This document shows, piece after piece, positions 17,472 to 26,635 of a DNA stretch of 26,635 nucleotides. The position numbers and the translations under genes are program-made. Origin of the DNA: Coemansia sp. RSA 922 (Eukaryota; Kickxellomycota; Kickxellomycetes; Kickxellales; Kickxellaceae); contig JANBQS010000200.1 of the NCBI GenBank assembly GCA_027577415.1, positions 1 to 26,635 of the forward strand, written 5' to 3'. The notes below the pieces were generated by a model. It had not been told where the DNA came from, did no database searches, and saw only the letters and a program-made list of their open reading frames with translations. Every line of letters starts with the position of its first letter. Position 1 is the first letter of the stretch.

Positions 17472-19142
17472 TTACAGGACCCATTCGACTTGTACTAGCC
17501 TTTGCTGATAGTTGCTGTAAACAGGCAGTTTGGATATGCAACTATAAGCCATCTCTATAGACCTTGTATATGCCTCACACCTCACCTTAGCCATCCTTGG
17601 ACACAACAGGCTCAAAATCTGCCCTATATGAGTGGCAATTATTGGCTCTGAACACGGGCATAGTGTAACTGCTACTAACTTGGACATGGGCATATAGTTA
17701 TTCTCGCAAAGCCGTGCCAAGCTATTGTGATTTGCCACGCATTCAAGAGTCACCTGCGCCTCTTTTGACTCTTCTATTGGTGCATCTAATAACAAATGTG
17801 TTAGATTAGGTGTACACCTCAAAATTGAGATATAATCTAGAACTGACAAATCAATTTTAGATAGCTTGAGAGTAGCTAAGCAACGAGCTATGCTTGAGCT
17901 GCAAAGCTTGCTCATATAGTTGTCCTTGTTGATACAATGCCCCAATTCAAAGTTCATGCACCGGACGTTTGATCCACCGTTAATAGCAAACTCTAGAATC
18001 TTGCGCTCAGCATCTGGTTCAGATACCTCACCATTATAGTAAATATCAATGCTTATATTCTTCAGTCTTGGGAACTTTGTTTGAATATTGCCTTCAATAT
18101 TGGGAATAAACAAATATTCATTAACTACTGGCCAAATTTCGATATGTTCCAGTGTCTGATTATTACCGCGAAACAGTATATCATTGCCAACACAGTTTAA
18201 TCCAGTCAACTTTAGTCTAGTAAGTACTGGAAATGGCGCACCATCTAATAGCAGGGCACGTTCATTGTCTCTTATTCCGCCGTGGATGAGTGTCAGGGAC
18301 TTGAGAATAGGGTACACTATGAGTGCTCCATCACCAGTGATGACAATATCTCGAAAGAAAAGCCGATTTTCAAACGTGACCTTGAGTCCAATTAGTGTTG
18401 AAGAATTTAGGCATATCAGCTTGGCGAATAGATCAGAATCATAACATTCATAATACGAAATCTTTGTTAATCCTGTCAAGGGTGGCAAACCGCCCACGAT
18501 GAAATTGTCTTCACTAAAAGAGTAGCCAATCTCCTTTTTGTTGACTAACAATAACGCAACTAGCTGTTTTAGACCTGTTGGTGCCACCGACCTCGCCTGG
18601 TTAAAACATTTACTGTTATCAAAATGTAGAGCACTTGTATTTGGGAACATTTGGTTTAGCCTTTTAGCAAACAGTGTAATGTTTGCCTCGCATTCTTCGT
18701 CACTTGGTAGCATTTGCATGTTTCTAGCTGATAGATGCAACTTAATATAATTGACATTGACAAATCTAGAATTTTTAAACATTGGTGAGTCCATTACTTT
18801 CCATGCCGTTCCATCCACCACATCAGCATAGTGAACGTTCATTTTGACCGACTTTACATACTTCTGAGCATTGTTATCAATAGAAAACTCGATTGTATTA
18901 GCAAGCTTATTAGTTTCTTGCTTGGCTATATTGCTGTACACGTCAATGTCAAATATAGCAAGAGCACTCAAAAATGGTAAGCAAGCCAATCTCCATTGCG
19001 ACGAAATTTGAGAATACTTTACCACTTCAGAGAGGTCAAAATCACAACCATATGCAATAGTATGATGTTTCTTAGGGTTGAATTTTCCATGTTGTGCTAT
19101 ATTTCTAATCAAGTGTTCAGGAAGTGTGTCGAGCTCGAACAT
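17472..19142 (-). CDS. F-box/LRR-like protein
   Basis: A 556-residue protein whose N-terminus, FELDTLPEHLIRNIAQ, followed after an insert by LSEVVKYSQISSQWRLACLPFL, has the pattern of an F-box (residues about 2-60), the Skp1-binding segment of SCF ligases. The rest is a run of irregular leucine-rich repeats (for example LTGLTKISYYEC, LKSLTLIHGGI, LTRLKLTGLNC, LKNISIDIYY, LATLKLSKIDL, LTHLLLDAP), which would form a curved substrate-binding scaffold. It probably selects proteins for ubiquitination; the target is unknown. Large families of such rapidly diverging proteins are common in some zygomycete-grade fungi. An in-frame extension upstream (to 19460) starts without an ATG and reads as low-complexity; I chose the Met at 19142 because the F-box begins there. 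The body is intact and intronless. Confidence 0.7.
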   Translation of the reverse strand: MFELDTLPEHLIRNIAQHGKFNPKKHHTIAYGCDFDLSEVVKYSQISSQWRLACLPFLSALAIFDIDVYSNIAKQETNKLANTIEFSIDNNAQKYVKSVKMNVHYADVVDGTAWKVMDSPMFKNSRFVNVNYIKLHLSARNMQMLPSDEECEANITLFAKRLNQMFPNTSALHFDNSKCFNQARSVAPTGLKQLVALLLVNKKEIGYSFSEDNFIVGGLPPLTGLTKISYYECYDSDLFAKLICLNSSTLIGLKVTFENRLFFRDIVITGDGALIVYPILKSLTLIHGGIRDNERALLLDGAPFPVLTRLKLTGLNCVGNDILFRGNNQTLEHIEIWPVVNEYLFIPNIEGNIQTKFPRLKNISIDIYYNGEVSEPDAERKILEFAINGGSNVRCMNFELGHCINKDNYMSKLCSSSIARCLATLKLSKIDLSVLDYISILRCTPNLTHLLLDAPIEESKEAQVTLECVANHNSLARLCENNYMPMSKLVAVTLCPCSEPIIATHIGQILSLLCPRMAKVRCEAYTRSIEMAYSCISKLPVYSNYQQRLVQVEWVL

Positions 19143-19558
19143 TGTAGCAACTAGAATAGGTGTCTGACGCTCAAGGTAAAGATCAAGGGATATTGATGAC
19201 ACTGAAGAATAAAAAAAATAATGGTGATTGTTTAGAGTAGGCAAAAAAAGGAATACACCTGTTGGACATGGATAAAAGTTTGAATAGGCTGTCATGCTTT
19301 TCTTAAAAGAGCTGCTCGTAAAAAGCTTTGACAGTGTAGCTGCAAAGCAAAACTCAAAAGAGCTCTTTTTGAGGTAGGCAAAAGGCAGCAAGCAAAGCTC
19401 TTCATTTGGCGAAAGGATAACAAAGGCAGCACCTTTATGTATTGACCGTGTGTTAGACAAGCAGCGTGCTCAGTATAGGCTATTACTCGAGTAGTAGAAA
19501 ATGATGCTGATATGTTCCATAAATTGGCGTACTGGATTTGTCATGATTTGAATAATGG
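19143..19558. other. upstream region of the F-box/LRR gene
   Basis: The minus-strand frame of the F-box gene stays open for about 106 codons beyond its ATG, up to a TTG at 19460, but the translation is low-complexity and lacks F-box character. A pyrimidine-rich stretch ending TTCTTCAG before the ATG could be a splice acceptor of a 5'-leader intron. A near-perfect palindrome centred on GAGCTC lies at 19353-19373. No other feature is seen. Confidence 0.4.
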
Positions 19559-20690
19559 CCACAGTTCTTGTCCATACAGGGCTCTAATACAACAACGTCG
19601 TCATCATCTCCTAAAAGTTATCTCCCAGTTGTTTCCTTTGTAAACCCTGCTTCGATGAACCCCCGAAAGCCTAGTTGTGGAGTATCACCCGCTGCTGCGC
19701 CAGCCAACAAGAATAAAGAGATAGCCAACCTTTCTCAATCAATAAAACGACTGACTCTTGCTGCAACCGCCGTAGTCGAGTTTTCCCTTATATAAATACA
19801 ATCCCTGACTACCTATACTTTGACAACGCTTAAACTAAGCAGCTAGCCAATCTCAATGCAAGCACACTAAAGTAGTCAACTGTCAGAAACGTCGACGAGG
19901 TGGACTTGCGCACTATAATCCACAACTCTGGCGGTCTATAGAAGTTTGACAAAAATGGTACTGGTTGTCATGGATACCCCTGTCGATGCGACCTGGGCTG
20001 TTACTGGTGACGGAAGGTCTCTACAGAAACTAGTCATCCAAATTAGAGAGCTCATGAGGAACATTCTTGGCAGATTCAATTTGCTTAGTCGCAGCGGCAT
20101 CCTGCATATGATGCTCTTATATTTAGACAGGCTAGCGCACATATTTTTTACAGAAAATCAATAGTGGATTGGAGGAGACTAATAATTTATTTCAGTGGAG
20201 CAATACAGATAACGAACATATGCTGAGCGCTATGGAAACTACTTTGAGCACCTCAGCTCTCTGGGGATTGTAATTTTACTACCTTCCGCTCGATGCTTGT
20301 GATATACTCTCGATTATTTCAATGATTACAAGCCTAGTCCCTCTCTCGCGTGCAACATCGAAGGAGCTGTGCCAACTGCTGACGTGTTACCAGTGAGCAA
20401 GAACCCGAATACACCGTAAGAAGTATCACTCCTTGAATTGCAACATTAGACGACGTTACGCTCTAGAAGATGGTAATGACGACAACAAAGTCAAAAGAGA
20501 TAAATTGGCAGAGTAGATAACAGTTGTTGCTGTACCAATCGCCGGACATTGTCTTAACATTAAGCATACCGCTCTTGCCAGTGAGCAACGACCATGCACA
20601 GTGTCGGAATATTTTTTACTTGAATTTGGTTTGCCAATCCTTTTTGCGCGGAAATCCATGTGTACTTTGTAATATCTATCCAATCCATTT
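19559..20690 (+). pseudogene. decayed protein-coding region of unknown family
   Basis: Several stretches on the + strand read like real protein but are broken by stops and frame changes, and no start-to-stop frame exists. Segments: 19568-19795 (disordered, Ser/Pro/Ala-rich, then a Lys/Leu helix), 19955-20163 (containing VVMDTPVDATWAVTGDGRSL and RELMRNILGRFNLLSRSG), 20222-20416 (AERYGNYFEHLSSLGIVILL, one in-frame TGA), then a one-base frame change to 20418-20672 (KKYHSLNCNIRRRYALEDG through TVSEYFLLEFGLPIL, one in-frame TAG at 20514). The last segment faintly recalls a PAZ domain (RRxY followed by TVxEYF), so a dead Argonaute is one possibility, weakly supported. The four segments may belong to one gene or to more than one relic. 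Introns could explain part of the breakage. Confidence 0.45.
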
Positions 20691-20809
20691 TGATAACTTT
20701 ATATTGGTTTCCTATTAATATTTACTTATCAACAGGCAATATCTATGTTGGAGATAAATAAAAAATAATCGTTGAAAGCACACTGGCGAGAAACAAAAAA
20801 TAATTAGTG

Positions 20810-20960
20810 AAACATAATTTTTTTTTTTTAATTTTTTACAAAAATACCAACCCTGTTTGTTAGTTAGCCGCCTACCGGCATCGAACCCCATCCACCAGGG
20901 TAAGTGGTAGTGGCACTTCCAAGCCATTGCAACAACGTGTATGTACGTATTGGCACGTAC
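20810..20960 (-). mobile_element. possible tRNA-derived SINE-like element
   Basis: On the minus strand, an RNA polymerase III B-box-like GGTTCGATGCC (20887-20877) lies about 39 bases downstream of an A-box-like TGGCTTGGAAG (20926-20916), close to the spacing in tRNA genes. The sequence then runs into an A/T-rich tail with long A tracts (about 20840-20819). A proper T-stem cannot be drawn around the TTCGA loop, so this is not a functional tRNA. The combination suggests a short interspersed element, but no target-site duplication was found. Confidence 0.35.
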
Positions 20961-21221
20961 CTTGCTACCCACTATGACTCAGCAGCTAGTTTGTAATGTC
21001 AAGAAGCTTGCCTATTTATGCTACAACCCCGCAAACCTGCTTACGTCACCAGCCAATTGTAAAAAAATAAATTTATTCCCTTGTGCGGCCCCTCAAGGTC
21101 CGGTTAGAAGGGATGCCCACCTAGTCCTTTCTCTAGTAATTTTATTCATCGCTTGAATGTTGCGCCAAAATGAATAAATAAATATAAAAGCCCAATTGTA
21201 AAAAACAATAGCACAAGGCCA
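20961..21221. other. intergenic segment between SINE-like and LINE relics
   Basis: No gene is seen. A short open frame on the + strand (about 20941-21156) has no recognisable domain. The stretch is likely old mobile-element or background accessory DNA. Confidence 0.35.
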
Positions 21222-21910
21222 ATAACCAACTGTATTGGGAGTATTTGGGTCGATACATGTCTAACTGCGGCATAGGAGAAATATACTGTTGCCTCGTATT
21301 ATCGATATACAAGAGTAGCACGGATGATGTGAAGTTTGGCTCCTGGACTGTGACAGGTATTCGGACCTGTCAAGGCCTTTGACTGGGTGACCCGCTTATA
21401 CCATTGCTCTACAACCACATCGCCAAGCCCCTTCTACGCTAGTTCCGCAAGCACCCTGTGGGCATCAGACAGCCTGGTTACACGCTCCATGCTATTGCCT
21501 TTGCCGATGATATCACCGACGCACAATCCTCTGAGGACGATTTGACAGCATTCCGCAATGCAATAAAGCTACGCAGTCACACTTCGAATGCCAAATAAAA
21601 CGATGGCTAAACAGAGATGCTGCACATTGGCAACACAATATTCGCACCGTCTGGTATCCCTATTCTCCCAGATTGAACCATTACCAGGTACTTGGGAATT
21701 TACTTTTCCAAGGACGGCATCGCCACAGGACACATGGGGTGGATGGTATGACATCATCACCCTGCATAAGAAAGCTGGGCAGCCTCGGGTTCCTACTCTT
21801 TGTGAAGCAAAAATAAGCTATCTTTGCTCAGTTCATGGCAAACATGTCGTGCCAGAAGGATACTCACTGGTGGGAGGTCGCAGCTCAATGGGTCTTTTAC
21901 CAAGGGCAGA
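21222..21910 (+). mobile_element. degenerate non-LTR (LINE) reverse-transcriptase fragment
   Basis: One reading frame from about 21222 to 21760 shows ordered hallmarks of a LINE reverse transcriptase: a YKSSTDDVKFGSW segment, GIRTCQG, GDPLIPLLYN (21386 on), the catalytic AFADDI block with its two aspartates (about 21497-21514), LHIGN, and RYLGIYFSKDG (21686 on). At least five in-frame stops interrupt it (in the CQG-GDPL junction, after PLLR, after SNAK, shortly after that, and before TITRYLG). Beyond about 21720 similarity continues weakly with further stops or frame changes. No endonuclease domain, start or 3' tail is recognisable. The element is a 5'- and 3'-incomplete dead copy; the enzyme would have copied element RNA into chromosomal DNA. 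No other copy lies in the window. Confidence 0.85.
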
Positions 21911-22332
21911 GCCAAAAGAACATGAACTCTTCATGATATGCTAGAGATTGACTTGGCCAATAGCCGACTGTTACTTTATTTTGTCGCGATGACTTGACTA
22001 AACTTTACACGTTTCTTCCTTGTATGACAGTTGGAATGCTTGATGAAAGTAAGCATGAGGACCTGAAGAGAGCCCCACGCTATGCGTTTACTGCATCCAG
22101 ATAGGCGATTTAATCCCTCTTTAGCCAGTAGTTGTTTACGAAAATATCATGAATCTTCTTATTCTTATTACTCTATTGCTCTATTTAAATGATCAACATG
22201 TACTTGTCGATCGTAATGACAAGCCCCCCATACAACGTCATCATCATGCTTCACTTTTTTATTGTCAGAAATATTTCACTTTAAAGTAGTTGTCGCTATT
22301 TACTTCTAGTTTGTGTTATTTTGGCCAGAAAG
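21911..22332. other. region between LINE relic and membrane-protein gene
   Basis: No gene is seen. The first part may be the 3' remainder of the LINE relic (short protein-like pieces with stops). The last 200 bases are AT-rich and include CAT-CAT repeats near 22238, and probably hold the promoter of the downstream membrane-protein gene. Confidence 0.4.
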
Positions 22333-24750
22333 ATGCTGCTATCGTTACTCGCTACTGTGCTAGCTCTGCTGACCCAGCTAGCTCTCGGAGCCGACGACAG
22401 TGACGACAGTGGCAAGGTCGCTGTCAACCAAATGGACCTCCTAGGCGGCACGACGGGACTTGTAGCACTGACAGCAGCACTTATCCAAATTCTGCCATCT
22501 CCAGTCCAGCTGTGTGAGCGCAGATTGCAGCGGTTCCTCGACTGGCTTAAGAGCAGCATCGAGGACGACTTTTGCGTATCGCTCTACACATGCACTAACA
22601 AGTGCCACACACAGACGTATGAGCCGAACTCCGAGTCGATGCGCCGTCGCATCTTGACAAGTATCGGCGAGGCGGACTCAGTTGGCTGCATAGGCAATGA
22701 GCACTTGTCGGTAGATGAGCTTGTCACTATTATTCAGACAGGCAGTAACGCCAAAACACTACTTGAACTGGCGGAACTGGCTAGGTACCCAGAGATGGGC
22801 AAGCTCCGACGCGCAATTCGCACTGTGTATTACTCGCCTACCAATGGGCGTAGTGTTATTGTCGTTCAGTGGACGGGTTTTTTGTTCTGCGGTCTGGCAT
22901 ACTGGCTCGTGTCTACGGGGATTCCGCCAGCGTGGAGACAGTTTTGGCGCGTCATATTCAACTTTGTACGTCGTATTCGTCGGCTTACGCCTATTCATGG
23001 CAGCGCAGAGAGAGCTGGATTGGACTATCGTATGGCTGATTTAGCGCGTCATCGAACTTTGTTCCAGCATGTGCCTTGGATTCGCTATGCCCTCTACTAT
23101 ATGTTGTCGAATATGGCTAATCGCACGCTCAGTGCTCGCAGTTGGAGTATTGACGAGAATAAGGCTGATGTTGATAGTCAGCCGACTGAGCCTAATGAGA
23201 GCTCGCCTGTTTTTGGCCACGCGATGCTGGGCGAGCGCCGGTTAGTTACACGCATGGCCGCTGACGAATGCTCGGCAGCTCGGCTGCTGTACTCCAACGC
23301 ATTGCACAGCTTGCGCGTCATCTTGTTGTCCGAGACCGTTGCTTATGTGCCGCCCTACTTGCTTACTAGCTCATTTCGCATGGTTCGTCGGAAGCTCGCC
23401 AAGACTATGCTGGTGGTGACTCACAGCGACCTGGACGCAGTGTACCGCTCGCTGTTTGGCGGAGTTGGCAGTGACCATTCGCCTAGTGCTTACATGTTGG
23501 GTGGTAATACAGGCGGAGATCAGGTCAAGAACGAAGCGGGTGGCAGGACCTATGCACACGCGGCCTATGACCTGTTGCTTAAGCGACTGCAGTCCAAACT
23601 GGGTCGACAGATTACTAGTGGCTGTGAGATATACGTACTCCTTAACCTCACGATGCTGCCTTTGCATCATCGGTCGACTGGCAGCATCTCGGCGGCCAGC
23701 TCTGCAAGCAGTACTGAACGGCCACAGTTTGAAATTGAGGGTGTGCAAATACCAGACGACTTGCTAAGGAAGCTTATAATTGGGCGCGACACCACGGGTG
23801 CCTTTATATTCGAGCTTTTGACGCTGTTCAAGTCTACAGACATTTATTGGGGCTCGACTATCTGGCTGCTCTACTTGCTGCGCACAGTATACGGCGCCTT
23901 TTCTGAAACGGATCTAACGGCCAGCGATGAGGAGACAGGTAAAAGCACATTTATGACCATTCGAACCGAACTCAAGCTTCTCTGTTTCTCGCCGTTCCAG
24001 CCCCGCTTCGGAGTTCCTGGGTCAGATATTCCCGACTACGTTATTGGCCGCCAACACGACCTACATGAACCATTGGGTAGCTGGGACGTTTTAAGTGACA
24101 TTGATTACTGTAATTCGGTGCCCGCCTGGTGTACTTGCACTGGTCATTGTCCTGGAATATGTACGTTGATCGTCAATGAGCTGGATATGAATATTTTAGT
24201 ACCTAGGTACTTTACCACGCCGTATGCTTTTCGCATGAGCTTTCCGCGAGGACCCGGACCGGATGCCGAATTTACAGCATTGCGCCTAGTCTGTGCAACC
24301 AACTGGGACATTCAAGAAGAGTACGCACTTTTGACGCTCAAAGAGTACAGAGACAGTACTCAGCAGCCAAGTGGTAATCAGAATGCGCGACTTGACCAAA
24401 CGACTTTTGACCTTAGCGATATCTTGTACAGCAAGGCGGCCGTGGTTGTCGTTATACACGGTGGCTCGATCATGGTGCACAAATTAAACACGGATGCGGC
24501 TAGTGGAAAATGGCCCCTTAACCTTTGGTGTCGACCGTTGGTGCAGAGCTTGTTGAGTGGTGACCGCATTATTGTGCCCAAAGTCATAGCGCTAAAGTTG
24601 GAGCCCGTAGATGCTTTCACTGAGCAAGTCGGCAAGGAAATCACCCTGTCAGACAGTCGGCTGCGATACATGACAATGCAAGCGGCAAAGACGCCACGTT
24701 CGCTTGGAATACCCTTTAGAAGCCACGGGCCGATGTCTAAAGCAGCATGA
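22333..24750 (+). CDS. unrecognised large membrane/secretory-pathway protein
   Basis: An intact 805-residue open frame from the ATG at 22333; an upstream in-frame TTG at 22321 would only weaken the signal peptide. Residues 1-19 are a strong signal peptide (MLLSLLATVLALLTQLALG), followed by an acidic stretch (DDSDDSGK). A hydrophobic segment lies near 36-56 and a clear transmembrane helix near 174-196, followed by a basic stretch (RRIRR). Before the helix, cysteines at 81, 87, 91 and 119 suit the secretory lumen. The remaining 600 residues look globular, with a cysteine cluster at 593-610 (five Cys plus His) and a hydrophobic strand AAVVVVIHGGSIMVH near 700. I recognise no family. It stands 191 bp upstream of, and on the same strand as, the Crinkler-type NTPase, with similar GC content and no introns, which suggests the two travel together. 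Confidence 0.75.
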   Translation: MLLSLLATVLALLTQLALGADDSDDSGKVAVNQMDLLGGTTGLVALTAALIQILPSPVQLCERRLQRFLDWLKSSIEDDFCVSLYTCTNKCHTQTYEPNSESMRRRILTSIGEADSVGCIGNEHLSVDELVTIIQTGSNAKTLLELAELARYPEMGKLRRAIRTVYYSPTNGRSVIVVQWTGFLFCGLAYWLVSTGIPPAWRQFWRVIFNFVRRIRRLTPIHGSAERAGLDYRMADLARHRTLFQHVPWIRYALYYMLSNMANRTLSARSWSIDENKADVDSQPTEPNESSPVFGHAMLGERRLVTRMAADECSAARLLYSNALHSLRVILLSETVAYVPPYLLTSSFRMVRRKLAKTMLVVTHSDLDAVYRSLFGGVGSDHSPSAYMLGGNTGGDQVKNEAGGRTYAHAAYDLLLKRLQSKLGRQITSGCEIYVLLNLTMLPLHHRSTGSISAASSASSTERPQFEIEGVQIPDDLLRKLIIGRDTTGAFIFELLTLFKSTDIYWGSTIWLLYLLRTVYGAFSETDLTASDEETGKSTFMTIRTELKLLCFSPFQPRFGVPGSDIPDYVIGRQHDLHEPLGSWDVLSDIDYCNSVPAWCTCTGHCPGICTLIVNELDMNILVPRYFTTPYAFRMSFPRGPGPDAEFTALRLVCATNWDIQEEYALLTLKEYRDSTQQPSGNQNARLDQTTFDLSDILYSKAAVVVVIHGGSIMVHKLNTDAASGKWPLNLWCRPLVQSLLSGDRIIVPKVIALKLEPVDAFTEQVGKEITLSDSRLRYMTMQAAKTPRSLGIPFRSHGPMSKAA

Positions 24751-24941
24751 GTTTTTATTTTTAGGACAATAGAAAGACAAAAGGGATGTCATGGTTTTTT
24801 TTGCACATGTTCAATGCAGACATGACAGTCGTGCATATCGTCTCTCCCCCTTTATTTCTATTATCTATGGAACTCATGTTCTTGTATCTTTCATTTCCAC
24901 TATTTTTCTACAATTATTTTTCTTGTACTCTATATTATATC

Positions 24942-26635
24942 ATGTCAATGTTCGAGTCGCAGCAGCTTGGAACGGCAGGGGCCACATTGCAGCTATTGCG
25001 CGGCTACAGCGCTGACCCAACTTACAGCGCACTAGTTACCAAGCGGCGAGAGTACCTGCGCAGTTTAGACACTGAAAAGCTTCTGGGCAGCGATATACCA
25101 CAAGTAGCTAGACTGCCTGACATGGCGCTGTCAACCAGTGGAGTTACCAGTGAGCAATACATACAGATGCTGCTACGTCCATCGGTCGTCAAGCGTCATT
25201 TGCAGCCCACTGGCAAGCTCCAACGGTTCCTCAACGCAGGCCCACCACCAGTGTTGGCGATGGGTACGGGTCTCGTCAGAAGATTAGATACAAGACGAGC
25301 TGCTCCAAGTACAGTGGCGCTTGACAACGTATTGTACTTTACAGGCTGCGCTGGCACTGGCAAGAGTCACGTATTGAGAGAGCTTGCTGCTCGTGCTATA
25401 CACAATAGCACTAATGTGCGTGTCGTTTATATTGCTGACTGTCAGGCTTGGGCGGCACTGGAGGACTGGGCTCAGGTATCTTACTTGGCGGCGGCTATCA
25501 GTCTGGGGTTTGGGGCGGACGATGAGTTTAATGCGAAAGTGTTTCAAGCACTATCGTCGGCGGAGATGACGGACCCCGGGATGCTGGCACTTCAGCTCCT
25601 CAACTCTGTTAACAGCTTTTGCAAGGCTCGTGAGGATGAAAATGGCCGACTACTTCGAGTTTTGTTCTGCGTCGACGGGTACTCTGGACAAATACCGGTG
25701 ATCAGCAATATTGTCCAGGCTATTGCCCAGCGTTCCGACGTGTTTTTCTTGGCTCTGGCTACTACCGCCAACGAGTATATCCCGGCATTTTCTAATGCTG
25801 CTGCTCGCATTCCGCCACAGTACAAGGAGGACGAGGTTCAGGCCATACTGGCTCATTATATGACCGAGTCGTTTGACACAATGGCTAGAGAGCGCTTGGC
25901 AGAGAAAGAGTCGCTTGTGCGTCACCTGGTATACCAGAATACAGCATTTCACCCGGGAGATATGGCGCTATTGTTTGAGCGAGCTGCTGGTGCTTCGGAT
26001 TTTACAGACTTTAGCAAGCGCATCAGAGGCTTTACTACCGACTACTCTGGACTAGACAACGAGACGTTGCTGGGCAGCGGACTGGACCGTACGTGTCTGC
26101 GACCTGTGCTTTCTGAGAGCGCGCATCAGTTTGCCGAGGCCGTATTCCGACTATTCTTTAAGCTTCCAACGGATCAGGGTTCGGGGGATGTCAAGGGTCT
26201 GCAGAAATGTGGGGTACAGGCCGAGTACAATGCTCATTTCCAAATGTTCTCCGCCGATGAGCGTGGCCAGGGGTCGCCTAGCGAGCTGGAGTTTGTATCG
26301 CCGAGACGGGCCAATTATGTATTCGACCAGGTTTCCAAGGACGCCTGCGTGTTTACTACAGTGAGTAAGAGACTGGGCTTGGGCGGCCGTGGTCGATATG
26401 AAATGGCTTTTGCCTGTCTGCTATGGATGCTGCGTCGTGAGGGTATGGACTTTTTGGAATCTCGCGGTACCTACGACCACCGGCTATTCGGAGCTGCACC
26501 TAAAACGCGCGAAGATATTCGGCTGGATTCCTTGCGGCCCTTTGCCCATGGTGTCAGCACTGTTGGGTACTACTCTGCTGCCAACTCTGCCAGTGCTTGT
26601 GGTCCCATGCGAGGCCTGGACTTTGTGACGTTCCA
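24942..26635 (+). CDS. Crinkler/RHS-type P-loop NTPase, C-terminus cut by the window
   Basis: An open frame of at least 564 codons from the ATG at 24942 to the window edge, with no stop. Residues 1-120 are a variable N-terminal region with no signal peptide. The P-loop is GCAGTGKSH (about 135-143), followed by RVVYIADCQAW, a form of the VVYIPDC strand of fungal Crinkler (CRN) NTPases; the Walker B strand is VLFCVDGYSG with Asp 245, then FLALATTANEY, the usual sensor-like strand. Around residue 485, GRGRYEMAFACLLWMLRREG looks like the first helix of the restriction-endonuclease-fold nuclease that often follows this NTPase in CRN proteins; its catalytic residues would lie beyond the edge. CRN proteins are host-directed effectors in oomycetes and some fungi, and in free-living fungi may act in inter-fungal conflict. 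Family assignment is by motif pattern only. Confidence 0.7.
   Translation, partial: MSMFESQQLGTAGATLQLLRGYSADPTYSALVTKRREYLRSLDTEKLLGSDIPQVARLPDMALSTSGVTSEQYIQMLLRPSVVKRHLQPTGKLQRFLNAGPPPVLAMGTGLVRRLDTRRAAPSTVALDNVLYFTGCAGTGKSHVLRELAARAIHNSTNVRVVYIADCQAWAALEDWAQVSYLAAAISLGFGADDEFNAKVFQALSSAEMTDPGMLALQLLNSVNSFCKAREDENGRLLRVLFCVDGYSGQIPVISNIVQAIAQRSDVFFLALATTANEYIPAFSNAAARIPPQYKEDEVQAILAHYMTESFDTMARERLAEKESLVRHLVYQNTAFHPGDMALLFERAAGASDFTDFSKRIRGFTTDYSGLDNETLLGSGLDRTCLRPVLSESAHQFAEAVFRLFFKLPTDQGSGDVKGLQKCGVQAEYNAHFQMFSADERGQGSPSELEFVSPRRANYVFDQVSKDACVFTTVSKRLGLGGRGRYEMAFACLLWMLRREGMDFLESRGTYDHRLFGAAPKTREDIRLDSLRPFAHGVSTVGYYSAANSASACGPMRGLDFVTF

What the first reader, a model, noticed from the sequence alone, without database searches (positions are those of the whole stretch)
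22333..26635. Tandem membrane protein and Crinkler-type NTPase: candidate two-gene system
Seen: two long intact intronless genes in the same direction, 191 bp apart, at the right of a relic-rich accessory region. The first has a signal peptide, a transmembrane helix and no recognised family; the second has a CRN-like P-loop, Walker B and the start of a possible nuclease domain. Known: CRN/RHS-class proteins pair an NTPase with a nuclease effector and are implicated in genetic conflict. Inference: the membrane protein may deliver, sense for, or restrain the NTPase. Nothing else links them yet.
Basis: partly seen in the sequence, partly recalled or inferred. Interest (0 to 1): 0.75.

Follow-up and report, generated by a model that had tools for sequence, protein, structure and literature searches.

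The report
Two neighbouring Coemansia orphan genes
Two real genes of the fungus Coemansia lie side by side, one for a membrane protein of unknown kind and one for a probable ATP-driven switch protein, but nothing beyond ordinary close packing shows so far that they work as a pair.

The parts
22333..24750 (+). Gene 1: 805-aa membrane protein of a family found here only in Coemansia
   Evidence: Open frame; 13 of 13 homologues are Coemansia; no Pfam family at E<=1 for this protein; dN/dS 0.17 between haplotypes
22333..22389 (+). Gene 1 predicted signal peptide, hydrophobic residues 1-19
   Evidence: Hydropathy 2.08 over 19 residues; above 1.4 in 10 of 11 relatives with an N-terminus
22438..22494 (+). 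Gene 1 predicted transmembrane helix, residues 36-54
   Evidence: Hydropathy 1.82; above 1.4 in 13 of 13 relatives with letters there
22855..22911 (+). Gene 1 second hydrophobic stretch, residues 175-193, doubtful as a membrane span
   Evidence: Hydropathy 1.82 here; above 1.4 in 10 of 14 relatives, below in P0018, P0020, P0022 and P0024; basic on both sides
24130..24162 (+). Gene 1 cysteine cluster, C600, C602, C606, C610
   Evidence: Cys in 12/12, 12/13, 11/13 and 12/13 sequences with a letter in the column
24751..24941 (+). 191-bp spacer between the two genes
   Evidence: 8 mismatches in 182 aligned bases and 4 indels (6, 4, 1, 1 bases) against the other haplotype
24942..26635 (+). Gene 2: AAA+/STAND-type ATPase, first 564 of about 685 residues; the rest lies beyond the contig end
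   Evidence: dN/dS 0.29 between haplotypes
25344..25367 (+). Walker A, residues 135-142 (GCAGTGKS)
   Evidence: G135, C136, G138, G140, K141 and S142 invariant in 10 of 10
25659..25676 (+). Walker B strand, residues 240-245, ending in D245
   Evidence: L241, F242, C243 and D245 invariant in 10 of 10
26259..26279 (+). Conserved ERGxGSP motif, residues 440-446, after the ATPase
   Evidence: E440, R441, G442, G444, S445 and P446 invariant in 10 of 10; 428-530 is the best conserved of eight blocks compared
26619..26621 (+). D560, near the start of the C-terminal alpha/beta domain
   Evidence: Invariant in 10 of 10; the domain is modelled at moderate confidence from about residue 563

Best explanation
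Two independent Coemansia-restricted genes, each seen once per haplotype, that are neighbours because the locus is densely packed. Gene 2 encodes an AAA+ ATPase of the CDC6/ORC-STAND clade, close in fold to DAP3 and plausibly to the CR-ATPases. Its Walker A and B motifs are intact (shown in sequence), so it most likely binds ATP and uses ATP-dependent conformational change to control a C-terminal module, made of a conserved helical block and an alpha/beta domain, that acts on nucleic acid (inferred from the clade; cytosolic or nuclear location also inferred). Gene 1 encodes a secretory-pathway protein with a cleaved signal peptide, one membrane helix and a large, probably cytosolic, cysteine-containing domain (topology inferred from hydropathy and charge). 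No physical or functional link between the two is shown.
Against: The order gene 1 then gene 2 is kept in both haplotypes, and both families occur at least in C. aciculifera and C. thaxteri, so a conserved pair is not excluded. By dN/dS gene 1 exceeds 4 and gene 2 exceeds 5 of 6 neighbours tested, as shared conflict genes might. The nucleic-acid role rests on clade analogy only. No Pfam match of gene 2 relatives reaches its curated cut-off. The gene 2 model is poor over residues 365-562 and the gene 1 model is unusable (mean pLDDT 39.9). The spacing background is one contig only.
Confidence: 0.6

Rival explanations
1. A functional two-gene system: gene 1 is a membrane receptor or anchor and gene 2 is the STAND switch with a C-terminal effector domain, a fungal parallel to membrane-linked NLR-like defence.
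For: Adjacent, same strand, same order in both haplotypes; both faster evolving than most tested neighbours; weak P-loop matches of gene 2 relatives to nSTAND3 (10 of 10, best E 0.012), nSTAND6 (1 of 10, E 6e-4), mad8 (E 3e-4) and Avs2 (best E 0.0016, 2 proteins scanned).
Against: The two copies are alleles, not independent instances; the spacing is ordinary for the locus; gene 1 relatives found in C. reversa, C. guatemalensis, RSA 1085 and RSA 1933 with no gene 2 relative found there, though by word-limited searches.
Confidence: 0.12
2. Gene 2 is a true CR (Crinkler-RHS) protein: CR-ATPase plus helical linker plus REase-type nuclease, with the classical header lost or replaced.
For: Fold nearest the chains read as DAP3, and CR-ATPases are described as near DAP3 and RNA12 (PMC8195603 passages). 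NTPase + HTH + REase is the layout of most Phytophthora CRN C-termini (PMC5289972 passages). The model's order of three strands, two helices, strand over residues 540-638 fits a REase core loosely, the first strand lying in the poorly modelled part; D560 is invariant.
Against: No PF20147 or RHSP match at E<=1 in any of 10 members. The C-terminal 157 residues have only insignificant matches (Pfam best E 0.087, PDB best E 0.68). None of the 11 always-acidic columns after residue 365 is followed by lysine two residues on. Only two matches in the genome, one per haplotype (counts there are lower bounds), whereas a section heading on R. [quoted passage not shown]
Confidence: 0.25
3. Gene 2 is a housekeeping organellar STAND ATPase, a paralogue of mS29/DAP3 or RNA12 with a new C-terminus.
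For: The top 21 structural rows are all mitoribosome chains.
Against: Genes of both families exist elsewhere in the genome; profile comparison with the genome's own DAP3-family protein aligns 28 columns around Walker A only (hhalign probability 0.4 of 100); no DAP3 or RNA12 Pfam match at E<=1 in any of 10 members. A mitochondrial targeting signal was not tested.
Confidence: 0.1

Closest known systems
Mitoribosomal protein mS29/DAP3 (STAND clade; the protein name of the PDB chains is recalled)
   Different: 11-19% identity in the top 21 structural alignments, an extra C-terminal half, and a separate DAP3-family gene in the genome
CR (Crinkler-RHS) ATPase-nuclease proteins
   Same: Same broad part of the STAND clade if the DAP3 match and the published account are taken together; ATPase followed by further C-terminal domains
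   Different: No Crinkler header, no nuclease motif found, one match per haplotype
NLR/Apaf-1-type STAND switches and Avs2/nSTAND3 defence ATPases
   Same: P-loop AAA+ fold; weak matches at the P-loop region
   Different: No sensor repeats, TIR, Sir2 or other known effector domain among the Pfam matches of 10 members or the PADLOC matches of 2

Membership tests
CR (Crinkler-RHS) proteins | P-loop ATPase of the CDC6/ORC-STAND clade near DAP3 | tested here: met
   AF2 model residues 42-348 match mitoribosome chains read as mS29/DAP3 best, then ORC and NLR; shared with non-CR families, so not diagnostic
CR (Crinkler-RHS) proteins | Crinkler-type Ubl header (PF20147) | tested here: not met
   No match at E<=1 in any of 10 members; none in the genome, but that search's 14 controls rang nowhere. 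Other header types exist
CR (Crinkler-RHS) proteins | C-terminal REase-superfamily nuclease with catalytic residues | tested here: inconclusive
   No significant Pfam or PDB sequence match; D560 invariant, no D/E-x-K at the 11 always-acidic columns; the fold of this part was barely tested
Retrotransposon hot spot proteins (RHSP) | PF07999 match | tested here: not met
   No match at E<=1 in any of 10 members; none in the genome, controls silent
mS29/DAP3 | PF10236 match | tested here: not met
   No match at E<=1 in any of 10 members; the DAP3-family gene is on C745
RNA12/YME2 | PF10443 match | tested here: not met
   No match at E<=1 in any of 10 members; the RNA12-family gene is on C700
Two-gene membrane protein-NTPase system | Conserved adjacency in independent genomes | not testable with these tools
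   The genome has no relatives held here; the only second copy is allelic
Two-gene membrane protein-NTPase system | Spacing tighter than the local norm | tested here: not met
   189 bp on C9 is third smallest of 13 same-strand gaps; smaller are 69 and 175 bp, the next larger 210, 297 and 307 bp

The most novel reading that the evidence does not exclude
A Coemansia-specific, vertically kept two-gene surveillance module: a membrane-anchored protein paired with a CR/DAP3-like STAND ATPase that carries a new C-terminal effector domain, kept as one copy per haplotype rather than as an expanded effector family.
Probability: 0.1. Interest if true: 0.65.

Novelty: new member of a known kind. Interest (0 to 1): 0.28.

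Why it matters
If gene 2 is a CR/DAP3-like STAND ATPase kept as one gene per haplotype across Coemansia, it is a non-expanded member of a clade known partly for secreted effectors, and a way to ask what such ATPases do inside the cell that makes them. Gene 1 is a membrane-protein family found here only in Coemansia, with no family assigned.

Tried and rejected
Independent duplication as evidence for a pair: rejected, because CDC45 (99%), Med17 (98%) and the entire contig C200 are doubled in step, and eIF3-zeta is also found twice. DAP3 and RNA12 families were each matched only once, so the doubling is incomplete or partly unassembled; a diploid, a hybrid and a mixed culture were not told apart.

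Gene 2 as the DAP3 or RNA12 gene itself: rejected.

Locus-tag numbers in source names as a proxy for adjacency: led nowhere, because the names shown for the two families came from different strains.

Fold of gene 1: model too poor to search.

The Crinkler and RHSP family searches of the genome found nothing, but their 14 controls rang nowhere.

One isolated C-terminal match there, IMS in P0006 (residues 594-671, E 0.017, below cut-off), is taken as chance.

Literature: searches for Coemansia with Crinkler and Coemansia with NTPase returned 0 papers in the held library; Crinkler with Zoopagomycota returned 3 and Crinkler with early-diverging fungi 1, of which one, PMC10234402, was looked into (passages). 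Zhang et al. 2016 (Transposons to toxins) is not held (its DOI was recalled); its content is taken from passages of PMC5289972 and PMC8195603. Also seen as passages: PMC6131194, PMC12931631, PMC7159879 (nothing useful). Other papers were seen only as search listings.
Full report
Setting. The window is contig C200 of a 20.4-Mb, 960-contig genome. All named protein relatives of the two genes are from Coemansia (9 of 10 and 13 of 13), a genus of Kickxellales, so this is taken to be a Coemansia genome; the cluster of the C9 copy of gene 2 is named Coemansia sp. RSA 922 and its longest contig has the length of C9, 80,814 bases.

Gene 1 spans 22333-24750 (805 aa) and gene 2 starts at 24942, 191 bp later, and runs off the contig. 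Full-length gene 2 is 687 aa on contig C9 and 685 aa in P0003. Shuffling the bases of the gene 1 region 1,000 times gave a longest stop-free stretch of 330 codons. Substitutions between haplotypes are concentrated at third positions, and dN/dS is 0.17 (gene 1) and 0.29 (gene 2), against 0.04 (WD40/F-box gene), 0.05 (CDC45), 0.06 (DUF7789-like ORF), 0.10 (Med17) and 0.23 (CAP-domain gene); the sixth neighbour, ORF 17475-19460, gave 0.56, but from overlapping joined pieces that include a distant paralogue, so that value is unreliable. dS is 0.09-0.12 for gene 1, gene 2, WD40, CDC45 and Med17, and 0.04 and 0.07 for the DUF7789-like and CAP genes.

The second copy is not an independent pair. Contig C9 carries the same two genes in the same order. 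But all of C200 aligns collinearly with C9 (1-19582 at 94%, 19841-26635 at 92%, with a short 85% piece between), and CDC45 and Med17 are duplicated along with it. eIF3-zeta is also present twice. The other haplotype appears to resume on C115, whose first 10 kb match C9 from the end of the adaptor gene onward. DAP3 and RNA12 families were matched once each, so the doubling is not complete in the assembly. The simplest reading is two haplotypes or two close strains, with the pair at one locus.

The spacing is ordinary. On C9 the genes run on one strand in the transcription order gene 1, gene 2, LEA_2-like (E 0.0075, below cut-off), adaptor medium chain, M28 peptidase, with gaps of 189, 390, 210 and 69 bp. 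Among 13 same-strand gaps between non-overlapping ORFs of 200 aa or more on that 80.8-kb contig, 189 bp ranks third; these ORFs are mechanical, not curated genes. A wider background from other contigs was asked for and not granted.

The C-terminal half. Residues 428-530 are the best conserved of eight blocks compared (mean majority fraction 0.80), with invariant ERGxGSP and SPRR motifs. Eleven columns after residue 365 are always acidic, D560 among them, and none is followed by lysine two residues on in any of the sequences. Residues 531-687 of the C9 copy have only insignificant matches (Pfam Cep192_D5 E 0.087; PDB E 0.68 and 8.3) and residues 365-530 no Pfam match at E <= 10. A nuclease is possible and not shown.

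Gene 1. Thirteen homologues, 13 of 13 Coemansia, down to 35-38% identity in C. reversa, C. guatemalensis, RSA 1085 and RSA 1933. Among 14 proteins (P0001 and the 13) there are two stray Pfam matches, in one member each (E 0.12 and 0.21); P0001 and P0024 have no NCBIfam or PADLOC match at E <= 1. The N-terminal hydrophobic stretch is above 1.4 in 10 of 11 relatives that have an N-terminus, the helix at 36-54 in 13 of 13, the stretch at 175-193 in 10 of 14. The latter is flanked by basic residues on both sides (6 K/R and 1 D/E in 150-174; 10 K/R and 3 D/E in 194-245), so I infer one membrane span with most of the protein in the cytosol. Cysteines 87, 119, 313, 600 and 654 are conserved in all sequences that have a letter there (13/13, 14/14, 14/14, 12/12, 11/11). 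The AF2 model is not usable.

Does anything tie the two together? For: same order in both haplotypes, both families inside Coemansia and both seen in C. aciculifera and C. thaxteri, both faster evolving than most tested neighbours. Against: alleles only, ordinary spacing, a gene 1 family with relatives in four Coemansia lineages where no gene 2 relative was found. The last point is weak, because gene 2 diverges faster and the searches are word-limited. The decisive test, synteny over the Coemansia assemblies, could not be run here.

Verdict. Real genes; gene 2 a lineage-restricted STAND-clade ATPase, gene 1 a lineage-restricted membrane protein; functional pairing unproven and at present not favoured.

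Noticed in passing
L007:7382-8140 (C9:31381-32139) and L014:7730-8794 (C9:79730-80794), both on - strand: Two ORFs in stretches 88% alike at DNA level, each with a zinc-ribbon match to PF07282 (Cas12f1-like TNB; E 7e-4 and 1e-4, both under Pfam's cut-off), with fragments near C9:20759 and C9:24485: perhaps Fanzor/TnpB-like mobile elements; no blastn match in the window at E 1e-5.
   Followed up: partly
window:17475-19460 (-): Large ORF much more divergent between haplotypes (80% protein identity over 639 residues) than the other neighbours tested, with a distant paralogue further along C9 (25% identity); no Pfam match at E<=0.01; looks like an F-box/LRR-type family (impression, not tested).
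   Followed up: partly
P0019 (Coemansia sp. 'formosensis'): Shorter, more changed copy of the gene 1 protein in a species that also has a closer one (P0017); many R-to-H, C, Q or W changes, suggestive of C-to-T decay of a duplicate (seen by eye in the alignment; not tested).
   Followed up: no
whole genome G000: The assembly holds two haplotypes or close strains for part of the sequence: CDC45, Med17 and eIF3-zeta matched twice, DAP3 and RNA12 families once; dS about 0.1 in five genes.
   Followed up: partly
window:15083-16096 and C9 ORFs at 21101-22201, 32447-33277 and 34330-35133: Several similar-looking multi-span membrane ORFs near the pair (by eye); the first has a weak DUF7789 match (E 1e-4, under cut-off), the last has no Pfam match at E<=0.01; possibly a local family.
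   Followed up: no
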